DNA of 20,879 nt from Chloroflexota bacterium (GTDB lineage: Bacteria; Chloroflexota; Dormibacteria; CF-121): assembly GCA_005889285.1 (NCBI GenBank), contig VBFF01000088.1, forward strand, positions 652-21,530, written 5' to 3'. The stretch's first letter is position 1; every line of letters starts with the position of its first letter. The notes below the pieces were generated by a model. It made no database searches, was not told where the DNA came from, and saw only the letters and a list, made by a program, of their open reading frames with translations. Position numbers and translations under genes: made by a program. Below, piece after piece: positions 1,992 to 15,099 of the stretch.

Positions 1992-2498
1992 TCAGTCGGA
2001 GACCGGCTTGGCCGGACCGCGACGCTCGCGCTGAGGCTCGTCCCGCAGATCGATCGTGATGTTCGTTGCGCGACAGCTGGCCAGCAGCGTGCCTTCCTCG
2101 TCATGGAGCTCCGAGGCGGCAAAGGTCACCCGCCGTGTCTTCCGCACGACCCAACCAGTCGCGCGAATGCGCCCCAGGCGAGTCGGCCGATAGAACTCCG
2201 TCCTCAGGTCGGCGGTGAGGTAGACCTCGTCGCGGTCGAGAAGACTCCAGGTCGCGCTGCCCATTGCGCTGTCGAGGATGGCGGTCACCATGCCGCCATG
2301 GACGATCCAGCTGTCGCCGGCGGGAAACGCGTGATCGGTGTTCGCTTCCCATTCGAGTACGGCGCGCCCGGCCTCGAGCTCCGCCCGCCGCCAGCCAAGC
2401 GCATTCCAGATGCCCGGCTCGCCCGGAGCCGGTTGTTGCCACGAGTCCATCTGGGCGAAGCGCTCGCCAGCGCGAAAGCCGGTGCGGGCAGGTGTCAT
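1992..2498 (-). CDS. PaaI-type hot-dog acyl-CoA thioesterase
   Basis: A 168-residue single hot-dog domain protein, probably hydrolysing an acyl-CoA to the free acid and CoA. The PaaI/4HBT-type helix signature HGGMVTAILDSAMG lies at about residues 67-80, followed by the strand segment LTADLRTEFYRPTRLGRIRATG. The reading frame stays open further upstream inside the ligase gene, but the ATG at 2498 is preferred: it forms TGATG with the ligase stop (1-bp overlap) and gives a normal family length. Pairing a CoA ligase directly with a thioesterase suggests CoA-pool rescue or trimming of stalled intermediates. Only 3 bp separate it from the FMN oxidase start. Confidence 0.82.
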   Translation of the reverse strand: MTPARTGFRAGERFAQMDSWQQPAPGEPGIWNALGWRRAELEAGRAVLEWEANTDHAFPAGDSWIVHGGMVTAILDSAMGSATWSLLDRDEVYLTADLRTEFYRPTRLGRIRATGWVVRKTRRVTFAASELHDEEGTLLASCRATNITIDLRDEPQRERRGPAKPVSD

Positions 2499-4063
2499 CA
2501 CCCGGTCCGTGTCCGTTCCTGTTCCACCAGGACCCGCCGCAGGATCTTCCCCGACGGGCTCTTTGGGATCTGCGTTACCACGTCGAGCTGCCGGATCTTC
2601 TTGTAGGGGGCCACCTGCTGGTTCACAAACGCCATCAACTCGTCTGGCGTGGCGGCGCCCTTGAGCACGACCAGCGCTTTCGGTACCTCGCCCGCCTCGG
2701 GATCGGGGCAGGGGATCACGGCGGCGTCCGCCACGGCCGGGTGGGTGAGGAGGAGGCCTTCGAGCTCGGCGGGGGCGACCTGGTACCCCTTGTATTTGAT
2801 CAGCTCCTTGAGTCGGTCCACGACACGCAGGTAGCCATCGACATCGACCGATCCGATGTCGCCGGTGCGAAGCCAGCCGTCCGCGTCGAGCATGGCCGCG
2901 GTCGCCTCCGGCTGCTTGAGGTAGCCCGTCATCACCTGCGGTCCGCGGATCCACACTTCACCGAGCTCTCCCGGTCCCAGCTCGGCGCCGCTAGCCGGAT
3001 CTATCACTTTGCATTCCGTGTTGGGGATGAGGAGGCCGGCCGATCCGCCGCGCCGCCTGGCGGGGTCGACGGGTGTGGTCGAAACCACCGGGCTCGTCTC
3101 GGTGAGCCCGTATCCCTGGGCAACGAAGCACTTCAACCGGTCGCCGCAGGCCTGTTCAACGCTGGCGTCGAGCGGCGCGGCTCCCGAGTTGATCGACTGC
3201 AAGGCGTGCAGGTCATAGCGAGCGACCAGGGGGTGCTTGGCCAGCGCCAGGACGATGGGGGGGACGACGTTGGCGCGCGTGATTCCGTAGTCCTGCAACA
3301 GCCTGAGGAAGAGTTCGAGATCGAAGCGGGGCATGGTGACGATGGTGACGCCCTGGTAGAGGCTGATGTTCAGCAGCACGGTGAAGCCATAGATGTGGTA
3401 GAAGGGCAGGACCGCGATCGACCGTTCCCCCTCGGGGGCCTGGATGACAGCGGAGGTTTGCACAATGTTGGCGACCAGGTTTCGGTGGGTGAGCATGACG
3501 CCCTTCGGCAGGCCGGTCGTGCCGCTCGAGTAGGGCAGCGCCACCAGGTCGTTCCGCGGATCGATCGTTACGGCCGGAACGTCATCGTCCCCTTCCATTA
3601 GGGCCGCGAAGGGAGAGGCCCCGGCCGCCTCGCCAAAGACGAAAACCTCCCTCATCGGTGCCTGGCGTGTCGCCTCGAGCGCGTGGTCGAGGAGTTGAGG
3701 GACCGTGACCAGGTACTTCGCCCGAGCGTCGCTGAGCTGCAGCGCGAGCTCCCGAGGCGTCGACAGCGGATTGGCGGTGGTAGCGATCCCGCCGAGGGTG
3801 GCGACCGCGTGCAGGGCCACCGCGTATTCGAGCACGTTCGGGCTGTAGATGGCGAAAACGTCGCCTTTTTGGAAGCCGCGGCGCGCGAGGCTGGTGGCCA
3901 CCTGGCGGACCGACCTGGCGAGATCGGCGTAGGTGAGGGTGCGCCCGGTCGGCCCATCGATCAGGGCGGGCTTGTTTCCGAGGCCGTCCGCCCCGGCAAG
4001 CACGAAGGTCGGTAGTGAGATATCCGGGATGTCGACGTCCGGGTACGAGCTGCGGAAGATCAC
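2498..4063 (-). CDS. 4-coumarate--CoA-ligase-type acyl-CoA synthetase (AMP-forming)
   Basis: A 521-residue ANL-superfamily adenylating enzyme that activates a carboxylic acid to its CoA thioester in two ATP-dependent steps. The P-loop SSGTTGLPKG is at 179-188, the aromatic-acid-binding FYHIYGF region at 221-227, the A5 motif YGLTETS at 318-324, the GEVWIRG box at 368-374, the hinge GWLRTGD at 396-402, and the catalytic lysine in PKSPSGKILRR (Lys506). Length and both boxes match the 4CL branch, so aryl-propenoic, aryl or medium-chain acids are the likely substrates, but this cannot be settled here. The start is GTG, 13 bp after the acyl-CoA dehydrogenase stop, with only a weak Shine-Dalgarno sequence. 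Confidence 0.9.
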   Translation of the reverse strand: MIFRSSYPDVDIPDISLPTFVLAGADGLGNKPALIDGPTGRTLTYADLARSVRQVATSLARRGFQKGDVFAIYSPNVLEYAVALHAVATLGGIATTANPLSTPRELALQLSDARAKYLVTVPQLLDHALEATRQAPMREVFVFGEAAGASPFAALMEGDDDVPAVTIDPRNDLVALPYSSGTTGLPKGVMLTHRNLVANIVQTSAVIQAPEGERSIAVLPFYHIYGFTVLLNISLYQGVTIVTMPRFDLELFLRLLQDYGITRANVVPPIVLALAKHPLVARYDLHALQSINSGAAPLDASVEQACGDRLKCFVAQGYGLTETSPVVSTTPVDPARRRGGSAGLLIPNTECKVIDPASGAELGPGELGEVWIRGPQVMTGYLKQPEATAAMLDADGWLRTGDIGSVDVDGYLRVVDRLKELIKYKGYQVAPAELEGLLLTHPAVADAAVIPCPDPEAGEVPKALVVLKGAATPDELMAFVNQQVAPYKKIRQLDVVTQIPKSPSGKILRRVLVEQERTRTG

Positions 4064-4076
4064 GTGCGCACCAGCG

Positions 4077-5243
4077 TCAGCTCCACGCGCGCAGCGTCGC
4101 GTGCCCCTTCAGCAGGTTGCGCGCAATCGAACGGCGCTGGATTTCGTCCGTTCCCTCGTAGATCCGGTAGACACGAACGTCGCGCATCACGCGCTCGATG
4201 GGCATCTCTTTGGTGTAGCCCATGCCGCCGTGAATCTGCATCACCCGGTCGACGACCCGCCAGATCATGCCGGCACCCGCCAGCTTCGCGATCGACGCCT
4301 CGTGCCGAGCGTCGCCGCCCTGGTCCGCCTTCCAGGCGGCGTTGAGCACGAGCCACTTCACCTGCTCGATCTCGACGGCACTGTCGGCCAGCATCCACTG
4401 GATCGCCTGGTACTCGGCGATCGGGCGGCCAAAGGCGATGCGCTGGCGCGAGTAATCGAGCGCCATCTCGAGCAGTCGTTGCGCCTGGCCGACGGCCCGG
4501 GCGGGGATGATGATCCGTCCCTGGCCGATCCAGGCCATGGCAAGTTGGAAACCTTGTCCGACTTCGCCGAGGATGTTGTCGTCCGGGACGCGGACGCCGT
4601 CGAAGGTGATCTCCGCCGGCCGCCAGGCGCCCATCGTCTGGATGGGCTGGCTGCTCCATCCCATCGCCCGATCGACGAGGAACGCCGTGACGCCACCCTG
4701 GTGGCCCTTGCTTTTGTCGGTGACGGCAAAGGCGATCGCGAAGTCCGCTTCGAGACCGTTCGTGATGAAGACCTTGCGGCCGTTGAGGACCCAGTCGGCG
4801 CCGTCCCGAACGGCCGGCATCTGGATGTTGGTCGCGTCCGAGCCTGTGTCGGGCTCCGTCAACGCAAAGCAGCTGGTTCGATCGCCTTCGATGGTGGGGC
4901 AGAGGTACCGCTGTTTCTGCTCGGCGTTGCACGAGTACAGGATGTTGTCCGCGTGTCCGCCGTAGGAGAAGGGGATCAGCGCTTTCGACGTCTCCATGCT
5001 GATCAGCGAGGTCATCAACATGCCGAGGTTGGCGCCCCCGTATTCTTCGGGCGTCAGCAGGCCCCAGAGCCCAGCCGTTTTTGCCCTCTGCTGCAGCCGG
5101 CGGATGTCATCGGGTCCCGGGAAGGACCGGCCGTCGAGTTCGGCGCGCTGCGCCTCCGCCTCCAGCGGCAACAGCTCCCTGGCCACGAACTCGCGGACCG
5201 TTCCCAGGATCATGCGCTGTTCGTCGGTCAGCCCGAAGTCCAT
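4077..5243 (-). CDS. Acyl-CoA dehydrogenase (FAD)
   Basis: A 388-residue flavoenzyme introducing an alpha,beta double bond into an acyl-CoA and passing electrons to ETF. Signature 1 is visible as CFALTEPDTGSD (125-136), and the FAD/dimer segment as QIHGGMGY (336-343). The C-terminal RIYEGTDEIQ (360-369) places the catalytic base at Glu363, as in MCAD/SCAD-type enzymes. The length is typical. It is the promoter-proximal gene of the six-gene operon. The start at 5243 has a purine-rich AAAGGGAA stretch upstream and follows a leader of about 70 bp. A TTGACA promoter and a probable TetR operator lie upstream, so its expression is expected to respond to an acyl-CoA or related ligand. Confidence 0.92.
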   Translation of the reverse strand: MDFGLTDEQRMILGTVREFVARELLPLEAEAQRAELDGRSFPGPDDIRRLQQRAKTAGLWGLLTPEEYGGANLGMLMTSLISMETSKALIPFSYGGHADNILYSCNAEQKQRYLCPTIEGDRTSCFALTEPDTGSDATNIQMPAVRDGADWVLNGRKVFITNGLEADFAIAFAVTDKSKGHQGGVTAFLVDRAMGWSSQPIQTMGAWRPAEITFDGVRVPDDNILGEVGQGFQLAMAWIGQGRIIIPARAVGQAQRLLEMALDYSRQRIAFGRPIAEYQAIQWMLADSAVEIEQVKWLVLNAAWKADQGGDARHEASIAKLAGAGMIWRVVDRVMQIHGGMGYTKEMPIERVMRDVRVYRIYEGTDEIQRRSIARNLLKGHATLRAWS

Positions 5244-5991: not shown

Positions 5992-6021
5992 TTGACTTGC
6001 CCCAGCGTCAGCGGATAGTGT
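5992..6021 (+). promoter_or_regulatory. Promoter of the liv operon
   Basis: A -35 TTGACT (5992-5997) is followed by GATAGTGT, giving either GATAGT (6014-6019, 16-bp spacer) or TAGTGT (6016-6021, 18-bp spacer) as -10. Operator copy 2 starts 2 bp after TAGTGT. The layout mirrors that of the acyl-CoA operon promoter. Confidence 0.6.
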
Positions 6022-6023
6022 CT

Positions 6024-6043
6024 GATCGAACGTTCGTTAGGGA
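6024..6043 (+). promoter_or_regulatory. Putative TetR operator, copy 2
   Basis: GATCGAACGTTCGTTAGGGA differs from copy 1 at a single base. It contains the perfect palindrome CGAACGTTCG. It lies directly after the liv -10 and just before the Shine-Dalgarno region of livG, a position suited to blocking transcription initiation. Confidence 0.65.
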
Positions 6044-6053
6044 GAAGGAAAGG

Positions 6054-6848
6054 GTGGGAGAGCTTTCGCGGCCGACCCTCGAGGTTGTCGACCTCACCGT
6101 CCGCTTCGGGGGGATCCTGGCGCTGGATCAGGTTTCCCTTCGTATCGAGGCGGGTGAGGTCGTCGCCATCATCGGACCGAACGGCGCCGGCAAGACGACG
6201 CTCTTCAACGCGGTCTGCGGATTCGTTCGTCCTGATTCCGGCCGGATCGACTACCGTGGGGCGCCGTTGCTGGGCACGGCACCCCATCGCCTGGCCCGGT
6301 TAGGCATTGCCCGCACGCTTCAGGGCCTCGGGCTCTGGCCCGGGCTTTCGGTTCAGGAAAATGTCGTGGCCGGGTCGAATCGACGTCCGGGCCTCCTTTC
6401 GTCGCTGCTCGCCCTGCCGAGCTCGGATCGGATCGAGTCCGAGCTCGCCTCGAAGGCCCACGATATCCTCGAGCGGCTCGGCATCGCCGGCTACGCGAGC
6501 GCCTACCCCTTAACGCTGCCATACGGGGTGCAGAAACGGGTCATCATCGCTCGCGCCCTCATGGCGGAGCCCGCGCTTCTGCTGTTGGACGAGCCCGTCA
6601 GCGGCCTTTCCGCTGAAGACATCGACGAGCTTGCCGGCCTGATCACGCAGCTCCGCACTCGGATGTGCGTCGCCGTCGTCGAGCACCACCTCGATTTCGT
6701 GATGCGCATTTCTGACCGCATCATCGTGCTCAACGTGGGGCGTGTGATCGCGGCAGGAACACCGAAGGAGATCCGGGACGATCCCCAGGTGGCGACGGCC
6801 TATCTCGGCGAGGATGCCCCCACGCCGGAGGCGTCTTCCGATGCTTGA
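6054..6848 (+). CDS. livG: Branched-chain amino acid-type ABC transporter ATP-binding protein LivG
   Basis: A 264-residue ATPase subunit powering a LIV/HAAT-type importer on the cytoplasmic face. Counting from the GTG at 6054, Walker A is GPNGAGKTT (41-49). The family signature appears as LPYGVQKR (154-161) in place of a canonical LSGGQ. Walker B is LLLLDEP (175-181) and the H-loop is VVEHH (His211). The frame remains open to 5997, but that start would lie inside the promoter and operator. GTG 6054, behind GGAGAAGGAAAG, gives the normal N-terminus and is preferred. Its end overlaps livF by 8 bp. Expression is probably under the TetR site immediately upstream. The substrate need not be leucine, because LivFGHMK-type systems also import aromatic and other acids. 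Confidence 0.9.
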   Translation: MGELSRPTLEVVDLTVRFGGILALDQVSLRIEAGEVVAIIGPNGAGKTTLFNAVCGFVRPDSGRIDYRGAPLLGTAPHRLARLGIARTLQGLGLWPGLSVQENVVAGSNRRPGLLSSLLALPSSDRIESELASKAHDILERLGIAGYASAYPLTLPYGVQKRVIIARALMAEPALLLLDEPVSGLSAEDIDELAGLITQLRTRMCVAVVEHHLDFVMRISDRIIVLNVGRVIAAGTPKEIRDDPQVATAYLGEDAPTPEASSDA

Positions 6849-7548
6849 GGTCAACGACCTCACCGTGGCCTACGGTCCCGTTGTCGCGCTGCATGGCGTT
6901 TCCCTCACGGTGGCCGACGGGTCGATGACGGCTGTCCTCGGGGCCAACGGAGCCGGCAAGACGACCCTGGTTCGGACGATCTCGGGTCTGACGCGGCCGC
7001 GTGGAGGATCGGTCCGCCTCGACGGTCGCGACATCACGCGCCTGGCTCCCGATGAGATCGCCCGGCTCGGGGTCGCCCATGTGCCGCAGGGCCAAGGCGT
7101 GCTCGCCGAGCTCACGGTGGACGAAAACCTCCGTCTGGGCGGTCTGTGGCGCAGGGATCCGAAAGGCCAGCGCAGCGCGCTGGCGGAGGCCTACGATCTC
7201 TTTCCGCCGCTGGCCAACCGTCGGCATGTGGCGGCCTTCAGCCTTTCGGGGGGCGAACGGCAGATGCTGTCCGTGGGGCGCGCTCTGGTGGCGCGGGCTC
7301 GCGTGCTCCTCCTCGACGAACCGTCGCTCGGGCTCGCCCGACTCGTGCTCGTCCAGATCATGGCTCGCATCAGGGCGCTGGTCACTGAGCGCGGACTGAC
7401 GGTGCTGCTGATCGAACAGAACGCGAAGAGTGCCCTGTCAGTGGCCGACGAAGGCATCGTGCTCCACCTGGGGAAGGTGGTGGCACGGGGCCGAGCCCAG
7501 CACCTCTTGAGCGAGGAGCGACTTCGACATGCCTACCTGGGTTTTTGA
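6841..7548 (+). CDS. livF: Branched-chain amino acid-type ABC transporter ATP-binding protein LivF
   Basis: A 235-residue second ATPase of the importer, expected to pair with LivG. From the ATG at 6841, Walker A is GANGAGKT (34-41), the ABC signature is LSGGE (135-139), and Walker B is VLLLDEP (155-161). The LivF-typical LIEQNA (191-195) stands where other ABC proteins have the H-loop histidine. Upstream in-frame codons exist from 6814, but the ATG at 6841 gives the standard family N-terminus and an 8-bp overlap with livG, so it is preferred. One oddity is Arg167 in SLGLARL, where the family normally has proline (SLGLAP). livH starts 3 bp after the stop. Confidence 0.9.
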   Translation: MLEVNDLTVAYGPVVALHGVSLTVADGSMTAVLGANGAGKTTLVRTISGLTRPRGGSVRLDGRDITRLAPDEIARLGVAHVPQGQGVLAELTVDENLRLGGLWRRDPKGQRSALAEAYDLFPPLANRRHVAAFSLSGGERQMLSVGRALVARARVLLLDEPSLGLARLVLVQIMARIRALVTERGLTVLLIEQNAKSALSVADEGIVLHLGKVVARGRAQHLLSEERLRHAYLGF

Positions 7549-7551
7549 GCC

Positions 7552-8430
7552 ATGAGCCGTTTTTTCGTCCTGACCCTGTCCGGCCTGACTCAGGGCGCGA
7601 TCTACGCCGCGATGGCGCTTGCGCTGGTAATGATCTGGCGCGCCACGAAGGTCATCAACTTCGCCCAGGGAGCGATGGCGATGTTCACCACCTACCTCGC
7701 GCTGTTCGCCATCGATCACGGTGCCCCCTACTGGGTGGCCTTCGCGGTTGCCATCACGAGCGGTCTGCTCCTCGGCGCGATCATCGAACGCGTCCTCGTT
7801 CGCCCCGTCGAGTCGGCGCCTCCCCTCAACGTGGTCATCCTCACGTTAGGGCTGCTTCTCTTCCTCGAGGCGCTTGCTCCGATGGCCTTCGGTGGCCAGA
7901 TCAGGTCCTTCCCTCCGGCCTTCTCGATCGTCGGCCTGCATTTGGGCAACTCCCAGGTCGCCTTCTCTCCCTTCGATGCCTTCACGCTGGGCGCCGTCCT
8001 GGCCGTCATGGTCCTTCTCATGCTGCTCTTCCAAAAAACCAACCTGGGCCTGCGGATGCGCGCCTCGGCCTTCAACCCCGAAGTCTCAGGACTGCTCGGG
8101 ATCCGGGTCGGACGAATGCTCACCCTGGGATGGGCGTTGGCGTCGCTGGTCGGGGCGCTCGCCGGCGTGTTGATTGCGCCCTCCTTGCTGCTCTATCCCA
8201 CGTTCATGGATGACGTGCTGGTCTTCGGTTTCACCGGGGCTGTCATCGGGGGACTCGACAGCGCCGTGGGCGCCGTCGTCGGTGGGCTTCTCATGGGATT
8301 CGCCCTCAGTTACGTCGGTGGCTATTTTGGCTCGGACCTGGAAACCGTTGGGGCCCTGGTCATCCTCATCGCGGTGCTGATGGTGAGGCCGCGAGGCCTC
8401 TTCTCATTGCAACGGCTCCGGCAGGTCTGA
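7552..8430 (+). CDS. livH: Branched-chain amino acid-type ABC transporter permease LivH
   Basis: A 292-residue inner-membrane permease. Hydrophobic segments run along the whole chain, about eight in number. The N-terminal LivH signature is visible: GLTQGAIYAAMALALVMIW followed by KVINFAQGAMAM. The cytoplasmic EAA-type coupling region includes LGLRMRASAFNPEVSGLLGI (about 163-182), and the C-terminal MVRPRGLF is family-typical. The gene lies 3 bp after livF and 1 bp before livM, so all are one transcript. Together with LivM it forms the translocation pore. Confidence 0.9.
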   Translation: MSRFFVLTLSGLTQGAIYAAMALALVMIWRATKVINFAQGAMAMFTTYLALFAIDHGAPYWVAFAVAITSGLLLGAIIERVLVRPVESAPPLNVVILTLGLLLFLEALAPMAFGGQIRSFPPAFSIVGLHLGNSQVAFSPFDAFTLGAVLAVMVLLMLLFQKTNLGLRMRASAFNPEVSGLLGIRVGRMLTLGWALASLVGALAGVLIAPSLLLYPTFMDDVLVFGFTGAVIGGLDSAVGAVVGGLLMGFALSYVGGYFGSDLETVGALVILIAVLMVRPRGLFSLQRLRQV

Positions 8431-8431
8431 G

Positions 8432-9520
8432 ATGGTGGCCGTCCGTTCGCGCGTCGATCGACTGGTCGCCCCCACGCTGCGTCGTCATCTGCTGATTGCG
8501 CTGGGAGCCGCCGCCGTGCTGCTGTTGCTCAGCGCCCAGATCGGGGCCTACGACGACTACAACCTGACCGCGGTCGCCATCTTCGCCGTCGCGGCTGCCG
8601 GGCTCACCCTGCTTACGGGGCTGAACGGGCAGCTGTCGCTGGGTCATGGCGCGTTGATGGCCATCGGTGCGTACACCGCCTCATTGCTGTTGAAGGATCA
8701 TCGTCAGCTGCCGGTCATCGTGGTCCTGCTGATCTCGGTGCTGAGTGCCGGGGTCATCGGCATCGCGTTCGGGTATGCCGCGGCCCGTCTGCGCGGTCCC
8801 TACCTTGCGGGTGCAACGCTTACCCTGGCGGTTGCGCTTCCGCAGGTGGCGACCCGCTACAAGAGCATCTTCGGCGGCGAGTCCGGGCTGACCGTGCCGC
8901 CATCCGCGCCCCCCGACTGGCTGGGAGCCGACTTTCCGCCGGAGCGCTGGCTGGCGTGGATCGCACTCGCCGCCGCCGTGGTGACGATGTTGCTGCTGGC
9001 CAACCTGCTGCGCAGTGCTCCCGGCCGCGCCTTCAAGGCCGTGCGCGACAATGAAGCGGCCGCCGCGCTCGCCGGAATCGATGTCGCTCGCACACAGGTG
9101 CTGGCCTTCGTGATCAGCGCGGCATGTGCGGGCCTGGCCGGTGCGCTTTTCGCCTACTGGTCGGGCATCACGTCGCCAGCGGGATTCAGCCTCGGCCTCT
9201 CGCTGCAATTGATCACCGCCATCGTCATCGGCGGGTTGGGCAGCCTGGCCGGCGCCGTGTGGGGCTCCATCGTGCTGGTCTTCGTCCCGTTGCTCACCAG
9301 TGGCATGGCGAGCACGGTGCACCTTCCGAGCGCTGTCGCCGACAATCTGCCGCTCGCGATTTATGGCGGCATCCTTGTGATCGCCATGCTCGTGGCGCCG
9401 CACGGCATCCAGGGGGCATTACGGAGGATTCTCGCCATCGGCCGAGCTCGCTGGGAGTACCCCCCAAGGGGTGGGCAAAAGGGGGTGGTGGATTGGGACG
9501 ATCCCGCGCCAGGTACCTAG
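8432..9520 (+). CDS. livM: Branched-chain amino acid-type ABC transporter permease LivM
   Basis: A 362-residue inner-membrane permease, partner of LivH. The LivM signature GLNGQLSLGHGALMAIGAY is clear in the N-terminal third, with the coupling loop FKAVRDNEAAAALAGIDVARTQ further on. Many hydrophobic helices are present. The C-terminal tail after the last helix is basic and then acidic (ending VVDWDDPAPGT) and extends slightly beyond many homologues. It starts 1 bp after the livH stop (TGAGATG). A 41-bp gap with its own strong ribosome-binding site separates it from the binding-protein gene. Confidence 0.9.
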   Translation: MVAVRSRVDRLVAPTLRRHLLIALGAAAVLLLLSAQIGAYDDYNLTAVAIFAVAAAGLTLLTGLNGQLSLGHGALMAIGAYTASLLLKDHRQLPVIVVLLISVLSAGVIGIAFGYAAARLRGPYLAGATLTLAVALPQVATRYKSIFGGESGLTVPPSAPPDWLGADFPPERWLAWIALAAAVVTMLLLANLLRSAPGRAFKAVRDNEAAAALAGIDVARTQVLAFVISAACAGLAGALFAYWSGITSPAGFSLGLSLQLITAIVIGGLGSLAGAVWGSIVLVFVPLLTSGMASTVHLPSAVADNLPLAIYGGILVIAMLVAPHGIQGALRRILAIGRARWEYPPRGGQKGVVDWDDPAPGT

Positions 9521-9561
9521 TCGCCGGGGTAAAGGAACCCGCATAAAGGAAGGAGGTTCGA

Positions 9562-10884
9562 TTGAAAAGTGTGATGGGCGGCAACGCGCTGCGGATTAGA
9601 GGAATCGCGATCATTTGTGTCGCGGGGTTGCTCGCGGCCTGCGGCAATTCAACCAGCTCCACTGACTCCGGCACCAATACCGCGTCGGCGCCGGGCATCA
9701 CGGCGACCACGATCACGATTGGGAGCACGCAACCTTTGACCGGGCGGGCGGCGCCTGGCTATTCGGAGATCTCTGCAAGCTCGAACGCATACTTTAAGTA
9801 CGTGAACGCCCATGGTGGAATCTTCGGGCGCCAGATCACCTACACCTACTACGACGACACGTACAACCCGACCATGACCGCCAGCCTCACCCGCAAGCTG
9901 ATCCTTGACGACAAGGTCTTCGCCTTGTTCAGTGCGCTGGGAACGCCGACGCATCTGGCGGTCGTCGATTACATCAACTCCCAAAAAGTGCCTGATCTGT
10001 TCGTCTCCAGCGGCTGCAACTGCTGGAATGATGTCTCCAATCATCCCTACACGTTCGGCTGGCAGCCGGACTACACGATCGAGGGCAAGATCCTCGGCCA
10101 GTACATCAACCAGAATCTCGGCGGCAAGAAGGTCGGGTATTTCTTCCAGAACGATGAGTTCGGCCTCGACGGCGTCAAAGGCCTCGATGCGCAGCTGGGC
10201 GCGTCGACAGTCCCGGACGCGAGCCGGCAGAACTATGTCCCGACCAACACGAACGTCGGGCCGCAAATCGCCGCCCTGCAAGCGTCCGGCGCGCAGGTCG
10301 TCGTCTCCTTTTCGATTCCCGCGTTCACCGCGCTGGCGCTGCTAGGCGCGGCCAAGGTCGGCTATCACCCGATCTGGGTGGTGAGCAATGTTGGCTCGGA
10401 CGTCACCACCTTGACCGGCCTGCTAAAGAGCTTCTCGAAGGGTGCGGCCGGAGTCCAGTTGCTTGGCGGCATGGTCACCGACGCGTACCTCCCGCTGACC
10501 GGCGACAGCTCGAATAAGTGGATCAGCCTGTTCAAGGGGATTCACGACACGTACGTATCGACGCTCCCCTGGGATGGCAACGTCCTCTACGGTATGGCGC
10601 AGGCGTACACCCTGGTGCAGGCGATCAAGGCGGCGGGCCGCAATCCGACGCGAGCCAGCTTCGTGAAGGCGCTCGAGACCACCAAGCTGACCGGAGGGCC
10701 GGGGCTCGCGCCCTTCGGCTTCTCGTCCAGCAACCACCTCGGCTACCTCGGGGTGCAGGTGGTGACGATCGCGGCAGACGGGACGCAATCGACGGCGGGT
10801 TCCGTCTATACGTCCTCGGACTCAGGCCCGATCAGCCAGTACAGCGGCTCGGCATCGAGTCCTCCGGCAAACGGCATTCCGTAG
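9562..10884 (+). CDS. livK: ABC transporter substrate-binding lipoprotein, LivK-type
   Basis: A 440-residue extracytoplasmic binding protein of the periplasmic-binding-protein type 1 (Peripla_BP_6) family. It delivers the substrate to LivHM. The signal peptide ends in the lipobox LAAC (residues 24-27), so Cys27 should be lipidated. A Ser/Thr-rich linker follows, and then the ITIGSTQPLTGRA opening of the mature domain. The start is TTG at 9562, chosen because AGGAGG (9551-9556) sits 5 bp upstream; the ATG at 9574 would be too far from it. The strong SD suggests the binding protein is made in excess over the membrane subunits. The ligand cannot be read from sequence, though the surrounding acyl-CoA genes favour an organic acid. 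Confidence 0.9.
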   Translation: MKSVMGGNALRIRGIAIICVAGLLAACGNSTSSTDSGTNTASAPGITATTITIGSTQPLTGRAAPGYSEISASSNAYFKYVNAHGGIFGRQITYTYYDDTYNPTMTASLTRKLILDDKVFALFSALGTPTHLAVVDYINSQKVPDLFVSSGCNCWNDVSNHPYTFGWQPDYTIEGKILGQYINQNLGGKKVGYFFQNDEFGLDGVKGLDAQLGASTVPDASRQNYVPTNTNVGPQIAALQASGAQVVVSFSIPAFTALALLGAAKVGYHPIWVVSNVGSDVTTLTGLLKSFSKGAAGVQLLGGMVTDAYLPLTGDSSNKWISLFKGIHDTYVSTLPWDGNVLYGMAQAYTLVQAIKAAGRNPTRASFVKALETTKLTGGPGLAPFGFSSSNHLGYLGVQVVTIAADGTQSTAGSVYTSSDSGPISQYSGSASSPPANGIP

Positions 10885-10899: not shown

Positions 10900-10929
10900 A
10901 AGGGCCGCCGGCGTGATCTGACGGCCCTT
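10900..10929. terminator. Convergent hairpin between livK and the SDR gene
   Basis: AAGGGCCG (10900-10907) and CGGCCCTT (10922-10929) form an 8-bp perfect stem around a 14-nt loop, located between two genes that end tail to tail. The right arm overlaps the stop codon of the minus-strand SDR. T-tracts are weak on both strands, so efficient intrinsic termination is uncertain. Confidence 0.5.
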
Positions 10930-11647
10930 ACCCCTCTTCGAGGATTCGACCGCGCAAGCGGCGCATGCCACGTAACCAGCGGTCGTAGTCGGAGGCTTTG
11001 CGCTGGAAGAACTCGCCCACGGCCGCGTGGGGCAGGATGAGAAACCGCTCGTCGTGCATGCCGTTGGCGACGGCCTCGGCAACCTGTTGGGGATCCAGCG
11101 CGCCGCGGGTCAGGAAGTTGCGCTTGCCCTCCTGGGCCAGCATCGCGGTCCGCACCCCCTGAGGGCAGACTACGGATACCCGGATTCCCTGGTCGTAGTA
11201 GGTAATCGCCATCCATTCGAAGAAGGAGAGTCCGGCCGCTTTCGTCACGGCGTAGGGCGCCGCGAGGATGTGGTTGAGCAGCGCAGCGGCCGAGATGGTG
11301 CCCACGAGATAGCCTTCGCCTCGCGCCAGCATCCCAGGGAGCAGGGCCCGCGCGGCGTAGACGTGGGCCATGACGTGCACGTCCCAGCTCTCGTTGGAAC
11401 AGTAGATGTCGATTCGGCCGTGGGCCTCCAGCGTCCCACGAACCAGACGAGCAACATCCGATTCGACCGTTACATCGGTGGCAACGGCCGTGCCGCCGAT
11501 CTCGGTAGCGACCGTCTCGGCTGCACGGGGGTCGATGTCGGAGACGACGACGTGCTTCGCGCCATCGGCCGCAAAGCGCCGGCACAGGGCGCCGCCGATG
11601 CCGCCGCCGCCTCCGGTCACGACCACGACGCGGTCCCGAATTTCCAC
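10928..11647 (-). CDS. Short-chain dehydrogenase/reductase with an apparent internal deletion
   Basis: A 239-residue Rossmann-fold SDR. The cofactor motif TGGGGGIGG lies near residues 11-19 and the catalytic YAVTK follows GTISAAALLNHILAAP. The region that should read NNAG and then the helix with the tetrad Asn is abnormal. CSN runs straight into ESWDVHVMAHVYAARALLPGM, whereas relatives (from memory) have roughly 15-20 residues between the two and Asn where this protein has His (VHVM). The protein is correspondingly short. The GTG start at 11647 lies 2 bp after the stop of the kinase gene, so it is the last gene of this operon. A position-equivalent SDR in the lva pathway reduces a 4-oxoacyl-CoA. 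Whether this copy is active is doubtful. Confidence 0.8.
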   Translation of the reverse strand: MEIRDRVVVVTGGGGGIGGALCRRFAADGAKHVVVSDIDPRAAETVATEIGGTAVATDVTVESDVARLVRGTLEAHGRIDIYCSNESWDVHVMAHVYAARALLPGMLARGEGYLVGTISAAALLNHILAAPYAVTKAAGLSFFEWMAITYYDQGIRVSVVCPQGVRTAMLAQEGKRNFLTRGALDPQQVAEAVANGMHDERFLILPHAAVGEFFQRKASDYDRWLRGMRRLRGRILEEG

Positions 11648-11649
11648 CG

Positions 11650-12549
11650 CTAGCCGAGGACGCGGACGCCCTGGTCGATGAATCCCAGAATGGTGTCCGT
11701 TCGTTGTTCGTAGCTGGGGTCGGGACGCTTGCCGCGTCGGTGCAGCATCAGGTTGTAGCCGAAGATCGCGGCGTACTTGTAATAGGTCAGTGCCCGGTAC
11801 CAGCGATAGTCGTCCGGGTCGGCGCCGTACATCTCCCGCACCGCCTCGGCCGAGACGTGCGAGAGGCTGATGCAGCACAGGTCGAGGAGCGGCTGGCCGA
11901 GCTGCGCAATCTCCCAGTCGACGACGGCCGCCACGCGTCCGCTGTCGAAGAGCATGTTGCCGAAGTGGTAGTCCCCGTGGACGAGAACCGGAGGCGTGGG
12001 GCCGGGTTGCCACTCGAGCAGACGCTGGGCGAGCCGCGGTGCCTGTCCGGTGAGCTCCGAGGGAGCGCGCTCCATGAGCCACGTCCAGCGCGAGACCTCG
12101 CCCTCGAGCGGCATCGGCTCTTCACTCCCGATGCCGGTGTCCGAGCACGGCACGGCCTGGAACCGGCGCAGCACATCCACCGCCGAGGAGGCAAGCTGGA
12201 GCGGATCGCTGCCAGCGTCGATCGCCTGCTCGACACGCTCCCCACGGATCGCTTCCATCAGGACGAAAGGCCTTCCGTCGACGACCGGGTCTTGCGAGGT
12301 CGCCACCACGGCGGGTACCGGCAAGCCCTGCTCGTACAGCGCGGCCATGATCCGGGCCTGACGCGGAATGTCCGCCGGCCCGGCGATGCGAGCGCCCGGC
12401 GGAGGAAGGCGCAGGACGCCGCGACGGCCCTCGAGCTCGACCCAGTAGGAGAAGCCCGAGTGGCCCTCGGGGATTGGGCGAAGGTCGCGGACTGGCTCCT
12501 TGATCTGGGCGGCAAGGTCGTTTCGAATGCGTTCTTCGGCTTCGGTCAT
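11650..12549 (-). CDS. APH-family phosphotransferase, ACAD10/11- and LvaA-like (putative hydroxyacyl-CoA kinase)
   Basis: A 299-residue protein-kinase-like phosphotransferase. The catalytic loop is HGDYHFGN (181-188, Asp183) and the metal-binding DFG-equivalent is VVDWE (199-203, Asp201). The N-lobe carries a GHSGFSY loop. This branch of the aminoglycoside-phosphotransferase superfamily occurs beside or fused to acyl-CoA dehydrogenases, where it phosphorylates 4-hydroxyacyl-CoA (bacterial LvaA; animal ACAD10/11 kinase domain). An ACAD of the matching type is encoded two genes upstream in the same operon. The start at 12549 overlaps the histidine-phosphatase stop as ATGA. Longer in-frame readings upstream lie inside that gene and are rejected. 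Antibiotic resistance is an unlikely role given this context. Confidence 0.85.
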   Translation of the reverse strand: MTEAEERIRNDLAAQIKEPVRDLRPIPEGHSGFSYWVELEGRRGVLRLPPPGARIAGPADIPRQARIMAALYEQGLPVPAVVATSQDPVVDGRPFVLMEAIRGERVEQAIDAGSDPLQLASSAVDVLRRFQAVPCSDTGIGSEEPMPLEGEVSRWTWLMERAPSELTGQAPRLAQRLLEWQPGPTPPVLVHGDYHFGNMLFDSGRVAAVVDWEIAQLGQPLLDLCCISLSHVSAEAVREMYGADPDDYRWYRALTYYKYAAIFGYNLMLHRRGKRPDPSYEQRTDTILGFIDQGVRVLG

Positions 12550-13103
12550 CGAACCGCTTCCAGGTGGGCGGTATCGCACAGCGAACCCGCCATGCGACGG
12601 TCGCCCTTGACACGCACTACGCTGATGCTCGTGAAATCGGGAAAGAGCCGCAACGTTCCCGGGGTGAGCCGAAGGATGTCGCAGAGGTAGGTCAGGATGG
12701 CGATCCCATGGGTGACCATCACGATGCGCCCCCCCGGATGCGCGGCCATCGCCGCGTCGACGGCGTCCTGCATCCGCTGGATCACAGCAGCGGGACTTTC
12801 CTGGAGTTCGACCTTGCCGGCCACATAGCCCGCGCGGGCCTCGGCCAACCTGGGATCGGTCTCGATCCGGTCGCTGAACGCTGCGGCGGTCTGCAGCGCG
12901 CGACGATGTGGACTGCAATAGACGGCGTCGATCTCAAGCGATTTCAGCCGGTGCGCCAACCGTTCCGCCTGCTGACGGCCCAGGGGGCTCAGCGGTGGAT
13001 CGGAAACCTCCTCGAAATCGTCGTAGACATCGGCGTGCCGAACGAGCCAGATCTCGGTGACGCCCTCCACGCCAATCAAGTACGCGTGTTGGAGCGACCG
13101 CAT
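12546..13103 (-). CDS. Histidine phosphatase (phosphoglycerate mutase-like) family protein
   Basis: A 185-residue branch-1 histidine-phosphatase protein. The RHG-type motif is LVRHAD, with catalytic His23 following Arg22. SPHRRALQTA supplies the second arginine and VTHG the second histidine. Such enzymes pass phosphate through a phospho-histidine and act on sugar phosphates, nucleotides or other small molecules. The frame is open upstream to 13253 inside the ACAD gene, but ATG 13103 (16 bp after the ACAD stop) puts the RHA motif at the usual distance from the N-terminus. It overlaps the kinase gene by 4 bp, an intimate kinase/phosphatase pairing. Its substrate could be the phosphorylated acyl-CoA or an adventitious product; that is inference. 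Confidence 0.82.
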   Translation of the reverse strand: MRSLQHAYLIGVEGVTEIWLVRHADVYDDFEEVSDPPLSPLGRQQAERLAHRLKSLEIDAVYCSPHRRALQTAAAFSDRIETDPRLAEARAGYVAGKVELQESPAAVIQRMQDAVDAAMAAHPGGRIVMVTHGIAILTYLCDILRLTPGTLRLFPDFTSISVVRVKGDRRMAGSLCDTAHLEAVR

Positions 13104-13119
13104 CGCCCCGACGATGTCG

Positions 13120-14322
13120 TCAGTACTTGCCAAGCTCGAGCCGACCGAGCTGGTTGAGATGGACTTCGTCGGGCCCATCGACGATCCTGACCGTGCGCGC
13201 GTAGGCATAGGCATGCGCGAGCGGAAAATCGTCAGAGACGCCCGCCGCGCCATGCGCCTGGATCGCCCAATCGAGAACGGTGCAGAGCATGTTCGGGGCC
13301 GCCACTTTGATCATGGCGATCTCGGACCGCGCCGCCTTGTTGCCGGCCGTATCCATCTTGTATGCCGCATTCAGGGTCAGCAGTCGAGCCTCGTCGATCA
13401 AGATGCGCGACTGCGCGATGCGTTCGAGCCAGACCGACTGCTGGGCGAGCGGCTTGCCAAAGGCCACCCGGCTCGAGACCCGTTTGCACATGAGCTCGAG
13501 GGCCACCTCCGCTACCCCGATGAGTCGCATGCAATGGTGAATTCGGCCGGGGCCCAGGCGAGCCTGGGCGATTTCGAAGCCGCGGCCTTCGCCGAGCAGG
13601 ATGTTGGAGGCCGGCACCCGGACGTTGGCAAAGTCAACCTCGGCGTGACCGTGGGGCGCGTCATCAAAGCCAAAAACGGGTAACGGCCGCACGATCTTGA
13701 CTCCAGGCGTGCCGCGGGGCACCAGAACCATCGACTGCTGACGATGACGATCGGAATTCTCTGGGTCCGTCTTGCCCATGAAGATGAGGAGCTGGCAGCG
13801 TGGGTCCATCGCCCCCGATGTCCACCACTTCCGGCCATTGATCACGAGATCGTCGCCCTCGCGAATGATGCGGCTCTTGATGTTGGTCGCGTCCGAGGAC
13901 GCGACATCAGGCTCGGTCATCGCGAAACCGGAGCGGATCTCGCCATTCAGAAGCGGACGCAGCCATCGATCTTTCTGCTCTGGCGTCCCGAAGCGGTCGA
14001 GGATCTCCATGTTCCCGGTGTCGGGGGCTGAGCAGTTGAAGACCTCCGGGGCCCATGGGACGCGGCCCATGATTTCGCAAAGCGGCGCGTACTCCAGGTT
14101 GGTGAGCCCGGCGCCCAGGTCGGACTCGGGAAGGAAGAGGTTCCACAGCCCTGCCGACCGGGCCTTCGACTTCAGTTCGTCGACGATCGGGGGCGGCCTC
14201 CAGCGGTCTTCGGTTGTCGTCTGGTGTCGATAGGTTGGCTCGTTCGGGTAGATGAATTCGGCCATGAAGTCGTCGAGTTTTTTCTGGAGCGCCTTCACCC
14301 TCGCCGAGTGATCGAAGTCCAT
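13120..14322 (-). CDS. ACAD10/11-like acyl-CoA dehydrogenase
   Basis: A 400-residue acyl-CoA dehydrogenase fold protein. [15 protein letters not shown] (133-147) is the FAD-binding signature and [16 protein letters not shown] (355-370) the later flavin segment. The C-terminal [11 protein letters not shown] (381-391) replaces the usual YEGTNEIQ, so the position of the MCAD catalytic glutamate is Asp382. [18 protein letters not shown] sequence ([12 protein letters not shown], 255-266) and DGPDEVH are typical of the ACAD10/11/LvaC branch, which handles phosphorylated 4-hydroxyacyl-CoA. ATG 14322 is chosen because it gives the standard MDF start. The frame continues upstream, but that would run through the divergent gene. 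TACTAT lies 8 bp ahead of this ATG, fitting leaderless transcription. Confidence 0.88.
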
Positions 14323-14343: not shown

Positions 14344-15099
14344 ATGCCGGATTTCGACCTGACGGATCGCGTCGCGATCGTGACAGGCGGAAGCCGTGGC
14401 ATTGGCGAGGCGACCGCCGCTGCGCTGGCGGACCAGGGTGCCAGGGTCGTCATTTCCAGCAGGAAACCCGAGGGCCTCCAGGCGGCCGCGGATCGGATCA
14501 ATGCGCGCCATGCCGGCAGTGTCATGCCAATCGCCGCCCACGTGGGCAGGCCTGAGGATTCAGCGGGACTGGTCAAGCAGGTGATGGAGCGTTTCGGTCG
14601 CGTCGACATCCTGGTGAACAACGCCGGGACCAATCCGCACTTCGGCCCGATACTCGACGTCGAGCTCAGTGCCTGGGATAAGACGTTCGAGGTCAACCTG
14701 CGAGGGCCGTTGGTGCTGACCAAATTGGTCGTCGACGCCTGGATGCGGGCGCACGGAGGCGCCATCGTGAACGTGGCCAGCATCGCCGGACTGCGTCCGG
14801 AGTTTGGGCTGGGCCCCTACGGGGTGACCAAGGCTGGGCTCATCATGTTGAGCCGGCAGCTTGCCACCGAGCTCGGACCTGTCGGCATCCGAGTCAACGC
14901 CGTTGCCCCGAGCATCGTGAAGACGGAATTCGCAGCCGCGCTTTGGGGAAACGAGGAGATCGCTCGTCGTGCTCTCGAGCGCAATCCGTCCGGCCGTTTC
15001 GCGACCGCTGACGAGGTCGCGTCGGTCATCGCCTTCCTGGTCTCGGATGCGGCCTCGTACATCAACGGGGAAGTGCTTCCAATCGACGGCGGCGAATGA
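14344..15099 (+). CDS. Short-chain dehydrogenase/reductase (FabG/DHRS4-like)
   Basis: A complete 251-residue classical SDR. Visible motifs are the NAD(P)-binding TGGSRGIG (14-21 region), the structural NNAG followed by [10 protein letters not shown], the tetrad Asn in FEVNLRG, the catalytic Ser in NVASIAG, and YGVTK (Tyr and Lys). The C-terminal pattern [12 protein letters not shown] is standard for the FabG-like fold. The [11 protein letters not shown] segment is common in DHRS4-type carbonyl reductases. An arginine after the TGGSR motif and SSRKPEG at the end of beta-2 favour NADP(H). The gene diverges from the ACAD10/11-like operon across only 21 bp, so it may supply the intact oxo/hydroxyacyl reductase that the truncated SDR downstream in that operon cannot. 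Confidence 0.9.

What the first reader, a model, noticed from the sequence alone, without database searches (positions are those of the whole stretch)
10928..14322. Split ACAD10/11-like module with an embedded histidine phosphatase
The operon order is acyl-CoA dehydrogenase (DGPDEVH type), histidine phosphatase, APH kinase, SDR. The kinase, ACAD and SDR types match LvaA, LvaC and LvaD of the levulinate (4-hydroxyacyl-CoA) pathway and the fused domains of animal ACAD10/11. A histidine phosphatase translationally coupled (ATGA) to the kinase is not part of those described systems. It could remove phosphate from dead-end phosphoacyl-CoA, act in the elimination step, or tune flux. This would be a new variant of phosphorylation-dependent hydroxy-acid catabolism.
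Basis: partly seen in the sequence, partly recalled or inferred. Interest (0 to 1): 0.7.

Follow-up and report, generated by a model that had tools for sequence, protein, structure and literature searches.

The report
Kinase–phosphatase pair for hydroxy-acid breakdown
A soil bacterium carries a gene set that appears to break down hydroxy-fatty-acids by phosphorylating them and then eliminating the phosphate, with an extra phosphatase gene tied to the kinase gene; a similar phosphatase was already reported in one Pseudomonas cluster, but here it is kept across much of a bacterial class, and its job is still untested.

Summary
The four coupled minus-strand genes are real: ACAD 13120-14322, histidine phosphatase (HP) 12546-13133, APH-type kinase 11650-12549, SDR 10928-11647. 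The ACAD has every residue that PMC12440821 links to 4-phosphoacyl-CoA elimination (R255, R260, H263, R266, D382), so the module should work like LvaA/LvaC and ACAD10/11. Its kinase is a divergent branch. HP is RosC-like with an intact active site.

Outside the class HP is often absent.

The novelty claim fails in part: Habe et al. 2019 (PMC6692424, passages) reported a histidine phosphatase between lvaA and lvaC homologues in Pseudomonas citronellolis and suggested that it removes phosphate; ACAD10 carries a phosphatase-like HAD domain (PMC11342911, passages).

Best reading: a new variant of a known kind, in which HP most likely hydrolyses stalled phospho-intermediates. That role is inferred, not shown.

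The parts
13120..14322 (-). Acyl-CoA dehydrogenase of the ACAD10/11-LvaC type (400 aa), predicted to eliminate phosphate from a 4-phosphoacyl-CoA
   Evidence: Pfam ACAD domains; ACAD11 8v3u E 1e-139; R255, R260, H263, R266, D382 equal mouse ACAD11 R626, R631, H634, R637, D753
12546..13133 (-). RosC-like histidine phosphatase (195 aa from TTG 13133; 185 aa from ATG 13103)
   Evidence: PF00300; RosC E 8e-27; model pLDDT 88.9, first eight Foldseek hits RosC; R32, H33, R78, E98, H142 invariant in the 37 sequences aligned, and the same motifs kept in 119-120 of the best 120 of 1518 homologues
12546..12549 (-). ATGA overlap of the HP stop and the kinase start (translational coupling)
11650..12549 (-). 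APH-family kinase (299 aa), predicted hydroxyacyl-CoA kinase; HGD/N/DWE present, alphaC Glu is Gln64, CoA-contact Arg kept (R63)
   Evidence: PF01636; 9o56, 3dxp and the ACAD11 kinase domain; motif alignment; residue roles from PMC12440821 passages
10928..11647 (-). SDR oxidoreductase (239 aa), 17 residues shorter than near relatives in the NAG region; role in interconverting the keto and hydroxy substrate inferred
   Evidence: PF00106; start and alignment
14344..15099 (+). Divergent second SDR, 21 bp from the ACAD start, beside 4 of 5 same-order loci
5997..10884 (+). Liv/HAAT-type ABC transporter operon with substrate-binding protein (SBP), convergent with the module; SBP beside 5 of 5 same-order loci, possible importer of the substrate
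   Evidence: SBP PF13458

Best explanation
This is a phosphorylation-dependent hydroxyacyl-CoA catabolic operon of the Lva/ACAD10-ACAD11 kind, split into separate genes. The kinase phosphorylates a hydroxyacyl-CoA (probably on C4). The ACAD with the HCMR site and Asp base eliminates the phosphate to give a 2-enoyl-CoA for beta-oxidation. The SDR interconverts the keto and hydroxy forms. The RosC-like histidine phosphatase is made with the kinase. It most likely hydrolyses phospho-intermediates that the ACAD fails to clear (wrong isomer or chain, or the free phospho-acid after CoA loss), returning them to the hydroxy form and keeping CoA and phosphate from being trapped. Shown here: gene order, coupling, active-site residues, conserved kinase-HP linkage. 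Inferred: every reaction, the C4 position, the substrate, and above all the role of HP.
For: ACAD: all five diagnostic residues, also in the 12 B-order ACADs and the other 7 A-order ACADs aligned, although A and B lie in two different clades. Kinase: HGDYHFGN and DWE present, R63 at the ACAD11 R86 position. HP: catalytic residues kept. HP and kinase behave as one unit: 37 of 42 kinase genes and 37 of 38 strong HP genes in the class are adjacent; genomes with both, kinase only, HP only, neither are 37/4/1/68. Six weaker HP paralogues are beside a kinase in 0 of 6 cases. HP and kinase trees both join A and B orders, while the ACADs separate. Other lineages repeat the linkage: 3 of 5 Deinococcus plasmid loci viewed and P. 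citronellolis. A reason to clear the intermediate is documented: cells fed 4-hydroxyhexanoate form 4-phosphohydroxyhexanoyl-CoA and the free phospho-acid through ACAD10, and mutating the HAD domain raises both (PMC11342911 passages).
Against: No activity was tested. The kinase is a divergent branch with alphaC Glu replaced by Gln, so its substrate may not be a 4-hydroxyacyl-CoA. HP is not universal: 31 of 48 phylum kinase genes lack it in the stretches fetched, and 5 of 42 class kinase genes have none beside them. Of the 13 plasmid ACAD neighbourhoods viewed first, only the D. radiodurans one had HP. The nearest solved relative, RosC, acts on a flavin phosphate, not on an acyl-CoA (passages). 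The HAD domain of ACAD10 restrains its kinase with negligible phosphatase activity. Two kinase-linked HPs of other lineages (L068, L094) lack the second catalytic His.
Confidence: 0.5

Rival explanations
1. HP is a structural or regulatory partner of the kinase that takes the place of LvaB, with no essential hydrolysis.
For: In P. citronellolis no lvaB was found in the region and HP is in the cluster instead. The HAD domain of ACAD10 restrains its kinase with negligible phosphatase activity. The best 120 of 771 homologues of the Deinococcus HP all have Ser in place of the second catalytic His. DUF6285 (recalled to be the LvaB family) was found in 4 of 201 genomes, each time near an APH-type gene, with no HP in those loci of about 3 kb.
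Against: In the window family the catalytic residues are kept in 119-120 of the best 120 homologues, which a pure scaffold would not need. Mutual exclusion with DUF6285 rests on four loci and shows nothing by itself.
Confidence: 0.17
2. HP takes part in the main route by removing phosphate from the 4-phosphoacyl-CoA, as Habe et al. suggested, in place of ACAD elimination.
For: Same gene neighbourhood and the published suggestion.
Against: Hydrolysis would give back the alcohol, a futile cycle. The ACADs of the 12 B-order and 8 A-order loci aligned have the complete phosphate-elimination site.
Confidence: 0.08
3. HP acts on another phosphate in the same metabolism, such as a flavin phosphate (RosC-like) or a different phosphorylated acid.
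For: RosC is the closest solved relative; an annotated rosC is 38% identical by tblastn and groups with the kinase-linked HPs in the tree. Both have the N-terminal helix that forms the lid in RosC.
Against: RosC Trp181, which packs on the flavin, falls on Pro158 here (alignment, numbering by my count, position). A stretch of eight residues of RosC is missing in HP; whether it is one of the specificity inserts of the paper is not known. RosC sits on a long branch.
Confidence: 0.15
4. The adjacency is only shared ancestry or operon hitch-hiking without a functional link.
For: Most loci counted come from one class; related genomes repeat one event.
Against: The pair appears in several gene orders and lineages (HP before the kinase, after it, divergent) and stays together while the ACAD partner differs. 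Presence and absence agree in 105 of 110 genomes.
Confidence: 0.07

Closest known systems
Levulinate cluster of Pseudomonas citronellolis LA18T (Habe et al. 2019, PMC6692424)
   Same: Kinase, histidine phosphatase, ACAD and SDR genes together; phosphate-removal role proposed (passages)
   Different: There the kinase is 59% identical to LvaA and the order is kinase-HP-ACAD-SDR. Here the kinase is a divergent branch and the order is ACAD-HP-kinase-SDR.
lva operon of P. putida KT2440 (LvaA, LvaC, LvaD; seen only as cited in PMC6692424, PMC12440821 and PMC11342911)
   Same: Kinase plus HCMR/Asp ACAD plus SDR logic
   Different: Has LvaB and, in those passages, no histidine phosphatase; the window has HP, and G000 has no DUF6285 match
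Animal ACAD10 and ACAD11
   Same: Same two activities predicted; ACAD11 match E 1e-139, same active-site residues. ACAD10 adds a phosphatase-fold HAD domain to the kinase.
   Different: Fused in animals, split here. HAD and histidine phosphatase are unrelated folds (general knowledge), and the HAD domain of ACAD10 showed negligible phosphatase activity.
RosC phosphatase of roseoflavin biosynthesis
   Same: Closest solved structure to HP (first eight Foldseek rows), catalytic residues and N-terminal helix
   Different: RosC works on an aminoriboflavin phosphate (passages); Trp181 falls on Pro158 in HP and an eight-residue stretch is missing

Membership tests
ACAD10/11-LvaC type acyl-CoA dehydrogenase | Catalytic Asp in place of Glu (mouse ACAD11 D753) | tested here: met
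   D382 in VDGPDEVH
ACAD10/11-LvaC type acyl-CoA dehydrogenase | Phosphate site R626, H634, R637 (HCMR) plus R631 | tested here: met
   R255, H263, R266, R260; the other window ACAD (4077-5243) fails three of the five residues
ACAD10/11-LvaC type acyl-CoA dehydrogenase | Converts 4-phosphoacyl-CoA to 2-enoyl-CoA | not testable with these tools
   needs assay
LvaA / ACAD10-11 kinase | PKL catalytic Asp, following Asn and CoA-contact Arg (D220, N225, R86 of ACAD11) | tested here: met
   D193, N198, R63
LvaA / ACAD10-11 kinase | Canonical alphaC Glu | tested here: not met
   Gln64; Gln in the 16 A/B-type rows aligned and in Streptomyces L093
LvaA / ACAD10-11 kinase | Groups with the kinases of proteobacterial ACAD clusters in a tree | tested here: not met
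   24 A/B kinases form their own clade 100/99, joined only by L093, in a tree of 56; LvaA itself was not in the tree
lva operon | LvaB-like gene (DUF6285, family assignment recalled) | tested here: not met
   no match in G000, an 82% complete genome
lva operon | LvaD-type SDR | not tested
   an SDR is present but no LvaD sequence was compared
Histidine phosphatase branch 1 | Catalytic RH, second Arg, Glu, second His (motif roles recalled) | tested here: met
   R32 H33 R78 E98 H142
RosC flavin-phosphate phosphatase | Flavin-contact Trp181 | tested here: not met
   Pro158

The most novel reading that the evidence does not exclude
Hydroxyacyl-CoA kinases of this pathway need a built-in opponent. 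Bacteria of this class keep a kinase-phosphatase pair that proofreads or limits the phosphoacyl-CoA intermediate, and unrelated phosphatase folds were recruited for this more than once: histidine phosphatase here, in Deinococcus and in P. citronellolis; a HAD domain in ACAD10; a HAD gene in the Tsukamurella cluster.
Probability: 0.3. Interest if true: 0.6.

Novelty: new variant of a known kind. Interest (0 to 1): 0.45.

Why it matters
Phosphorylating a hydroxyacyl-CoA before beta-oxidation is a recently defined route, also used by mammals (ACAD10/11; passages). The bacterial kinase-phosphatase pair gives a simple, separable system for asking why phosphatase-like partners accompany these kinases. 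That is an open point in the ACAD10 work (HAD domain) and in the P. citronellolis work. It also warns annotators: close relatives of this HP are named phosphoglycerate mutase or PhoE in many source records, which is probably wrong for the kinase-linked set.

Tried and rejected
Chance or artefact of adjacency: rejected. Ordinary ACAD: rejected by the active-site residues. HP as a flavin phosphatase: lowered by loss of Trp181. HP as a dead scaffold in this family: lowered by the kept catalytic residues, though L068 and the Deinococcus homologues have lost one. HP and DUF6285 as mutually exclusive kinase partners: only four DUF6285 loci, inconclusive. Plasmid neighbourhoods of similar ACADs: I viewed 13 of the 60 rows listed (200 records matched); HP in 1 of 13 (L090-L094, L119-L126). 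Then 2 of 3 further Deinococcus loci had it, and neither of two actinobacterial loci did. Two Rhodococcus HP hits lie near but not directly beside a kinase and without an ACAD match. Literature: ten searches used. bore on the novelty question; apart from Habe et al. no paper on a histidine phosphatase in this pathway was noticed in those listings. Subscription papers are mostly not held. Rand et al. 2017 and Joshi et al. 2024 were not read.

Rows left out before counts or trees. Duplicate loci of one place were dropped from the trees. The ACAD tree (54 rows) left out matches under 300 residues (L019, G032 and G097 among them) and, by my skip list, G172 (L065). The kinase tree (56 rows) used 3 of 6 order-C rows and 15 of the 28 HP-less kinases outside the A/B clade. 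The 20 comparison HPs were picked by me from the printed top, away from the kinase places; their wider neighbourhoods were not read. L068 and L094, which lack the second His, were not in the alignment.
Full report
Observation. The window (contig C82 of G000, a 1.73 Mb, 82% complete genome) holds four minus-strand genes as described: ACAD 13120-14322, HP 12546-13133, kinase 11650-12549, SDR 10928-11647. HP and kinase share an ATGA; the kinase stop and the SDR start are 2 nt apart; the ACAD end overlaps the likely HP start (TTG 13133) by 14 nt. Domains are clear. Searched with the proteins, HP and kinase each have a single match in the held genome; the PF00300 profile finds three genes there. 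Related records are titled Chloroflexi or Candidatus Dormibacterota MAGs, so the organism is probably a Dormibacteria-like soil bacterium (inference).

What the ACAD is. Against solved structures it matches 4hr3 (E 1e-142) and ACAD11 (8v3u, E 1e-139; two more chains), and then falls to E 9e-39 for other ACADs. PMC12440821 (passages seen) names R626, H634, R637 and D753 of mouse ACAD11 as the residues for handling the phospho-substrate, with R631 shared by the family. The window has R255, H263, R266, D382 and R260. Of the 54 rows, 51 have all five. The exceptions are L093 (Tyr for His), L096 and the second window ACAD (4077-5243), which is an ordinary EGT type. This is strong evidence that the enzyme works like LvaC/ACAD11.

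What the kinase is. It has the catalytic Asp193 and Asn198 and the Arg next to the alphaC position, but that Glu is Gln64. In a tree of 56 kinases the 24 A/B kinases form a clade (100/99) joined only by a Streptomyces plasmid kinase (L093), far from the kinases of proteobacterial clusters. LvaA itself was not available for the tree. So it is a member of the APH family that works like LvaA by context, but it is not shown to be an LvaA orthologue and its substrate could differ.

What the phosphatase is. Best solved relative: RosC. The PDB entries were identified as RosC by an annotated rosC protein and by entry titles. The AlphaFold2 model (34 sequences, pLDDT 88.9, pTM 0.86) has RosC chains as its first eight Foldseek hits and has an N-terminal helix (residues 4-17) like the one that forms a swapped lid in RosC (PMC12051542 passages). 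R32, H33, R78, E98 and H142 are invariant in the 37 sequences, and these motifs are kept in 119 or 120 of the best 120 homologues (1518 found). RosC Trp181 falls on Pro158 (alignment; RosC numbering by my count; position), so a flavin substrate is not favoured.

Linkage. (1) search for related loci gave 14 HP loci; 13 of 14 have the kinase and an ACAD with all five residues adjacent. Five have the window order ACAD-HP-kinase-SDR (A) and eight have HP-kinase-ACAD (B). (2) In 201 genomes of the phylum, 46 genomes hold 48 kinase genes at E<=1e-15 (49 rows, two of them one gene). Seventeen have HP within about 1.5 kb (six of them in one family, f19); the other 31 have none within the stretches fetched, up to 6 kb each side where the contig allows. 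The expected number from PF00300 density is 0.24. (3) In 110 genomes of the class there are 44 HP places at E<=1e-15. Of the 38 strong ones (E<=1e-44), 37 lie beside kinase and ACAD (36, G095); the other (G087) sits at a contig end. Of the six weak ones, 0 lie beside a kinase. There are 42 kinase genes in 41 genomes (E<=1e-40) and 37 have HP beside them. G071, G111 and G175 were read and lack it; G285 and the second copy in G252 have no HP match at E<=1e-15 there. The genome table is 37 both, 4 kinase only, 1 HP only, 68 neither. Relatedness inflates the P value (1e-23), but the direction is not in doubt.

Partner exchange. In the HP tree (56 rows) A, B, L020 and RosC form a 100/99 group; C and D orders join with weak support (83/81), apart from 20 comparison HPs picked away from the kinase places (RosC, Deinococcus and L068 sit on long branches). 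In the kinase tree A and B are one clade. In the ACAD tree the A-type groups with plasmid and Deinococcus ACADs and three others of the phylum (98/92), and the B-type with its HP-less kin is separate (100/100). L020 goes with A in the HP and kinase trees (82/80, 92/80) but with B in the ACAD tree. The simplest reading is that kinase and HP stayed a pair and the ACAD partner was exchanged. HP-less kinases lie among the HP-linked ones in the kinase tree, so HP has also been lost or gained several times.

Beyond the phylum. D. radiodurans, D. wulumuqiensis and D. deserti plasmids have ACAD, SDR, kinase and HP in that order; in D. radiodurans the SDR between ACAD and kinase is not annotated and rests on an ORF match. 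D. psychrotolerans and D. aetherius lack HP in the stretch viewed. The best 120 homologues of the D. radiodurans HP all have Ser for the second catalytic His. Twelve of the first 13 plasmid ACAD neighbourhoods viewed lack HP. Tsukamurella has a HAD gene in the cluster.

Transport. A Liv-type transporter lies next to the module. Its binding-protein gene flanks 5 of 5 A-order loci, once in the other orientation. Branched-chain-type transporter genes also lie near the Haematobacter and R. koreensis clusters. This suggests uptake of a small organic acid; inferred.

Prior work. Habe et al. 2019 (passages) found a 218-aa histidine phosphatase between homologues of lvaA (59%) and lvaC (78%) in P. citronellolis LA18T, noted that no lvaB homologue was found there, and suggested that it may remove phosphate from 4-phosphovaleryl-CoA. 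They called for functional analysis. PMC11342911 (passages) showed that the ACAD10 HAD domain restrains the kinase with negligible phosphatase activity, and that the phospho-intermediate and the free phospho-acid form in fed cells. The finding's central novelty claim therefore fails. What is added here is the class-wide linkage, the RosC-type identity, the divergent kinase branch and the partner exchange.

Mechanism and verdict. Module as hydroxyacyl-CoA kinase plus phosphate-eliminating ACAD: likely (about 0.85). HP as an active clearing phosphatase for stalled phospho-intermediates: most likely single role, about 0.5. Kinase partner in place of LvaB: 0.17. Other phosphate substrate: 0.15. 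Main-route dephosphorylation: 0.08. No functional link: 0.07. None of these roles was assayed.

Noticed in passing
window 10928-11647: The SDR lacks 17 residues in frame (NAG to WRQ region) that relatives L017-L019 have; real deletion or assembly fault not decided.
   Followed up: partly
L094 8313-9026 (also L190 8277-8975, L191 8933-9631): The best 120 homologues of the D. radiodurans kinase-linked histidine phosphatase all have Ser instead of the second catalytic His, which hints at a changed or lost activity.
   Followed up: partly
L125 2134-2739: The Tsukamurella plasmid kinase-ACAD cluster carries a HAD phosphatase-like gene whose best NCBIfam match is the HAD-1A3 family, below cut-off; a possible parallel to the ACAD10 HAD domain.
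   Followed up: partly
L086 5986-6657: A Streptomyces camelliae gene annotated rosC lies among radical SAM, AMP-binding, acyl carrier protein and ketosynthase genes; no other roseoflavin gene is annotated in the 12.6 kb viewed.
   Followed up: no
L095-L098: DUF6285 genes (4 of 201 genomes) each lie near an APH-type gene.
   Followed up: partly
window 2498-5243: A second, ordinary acyl-CoA dehydrogenase (EGT type) and an acyl-CoA ligase lie in the window with MaoC and thioesterase genes, a likely beta-oxidation neighbourhood.
   Followed up: no
L068 6822-7568: In genome G188 the phosphatase is divergent from the kinase and also lacks the second His.
   Followed up: no
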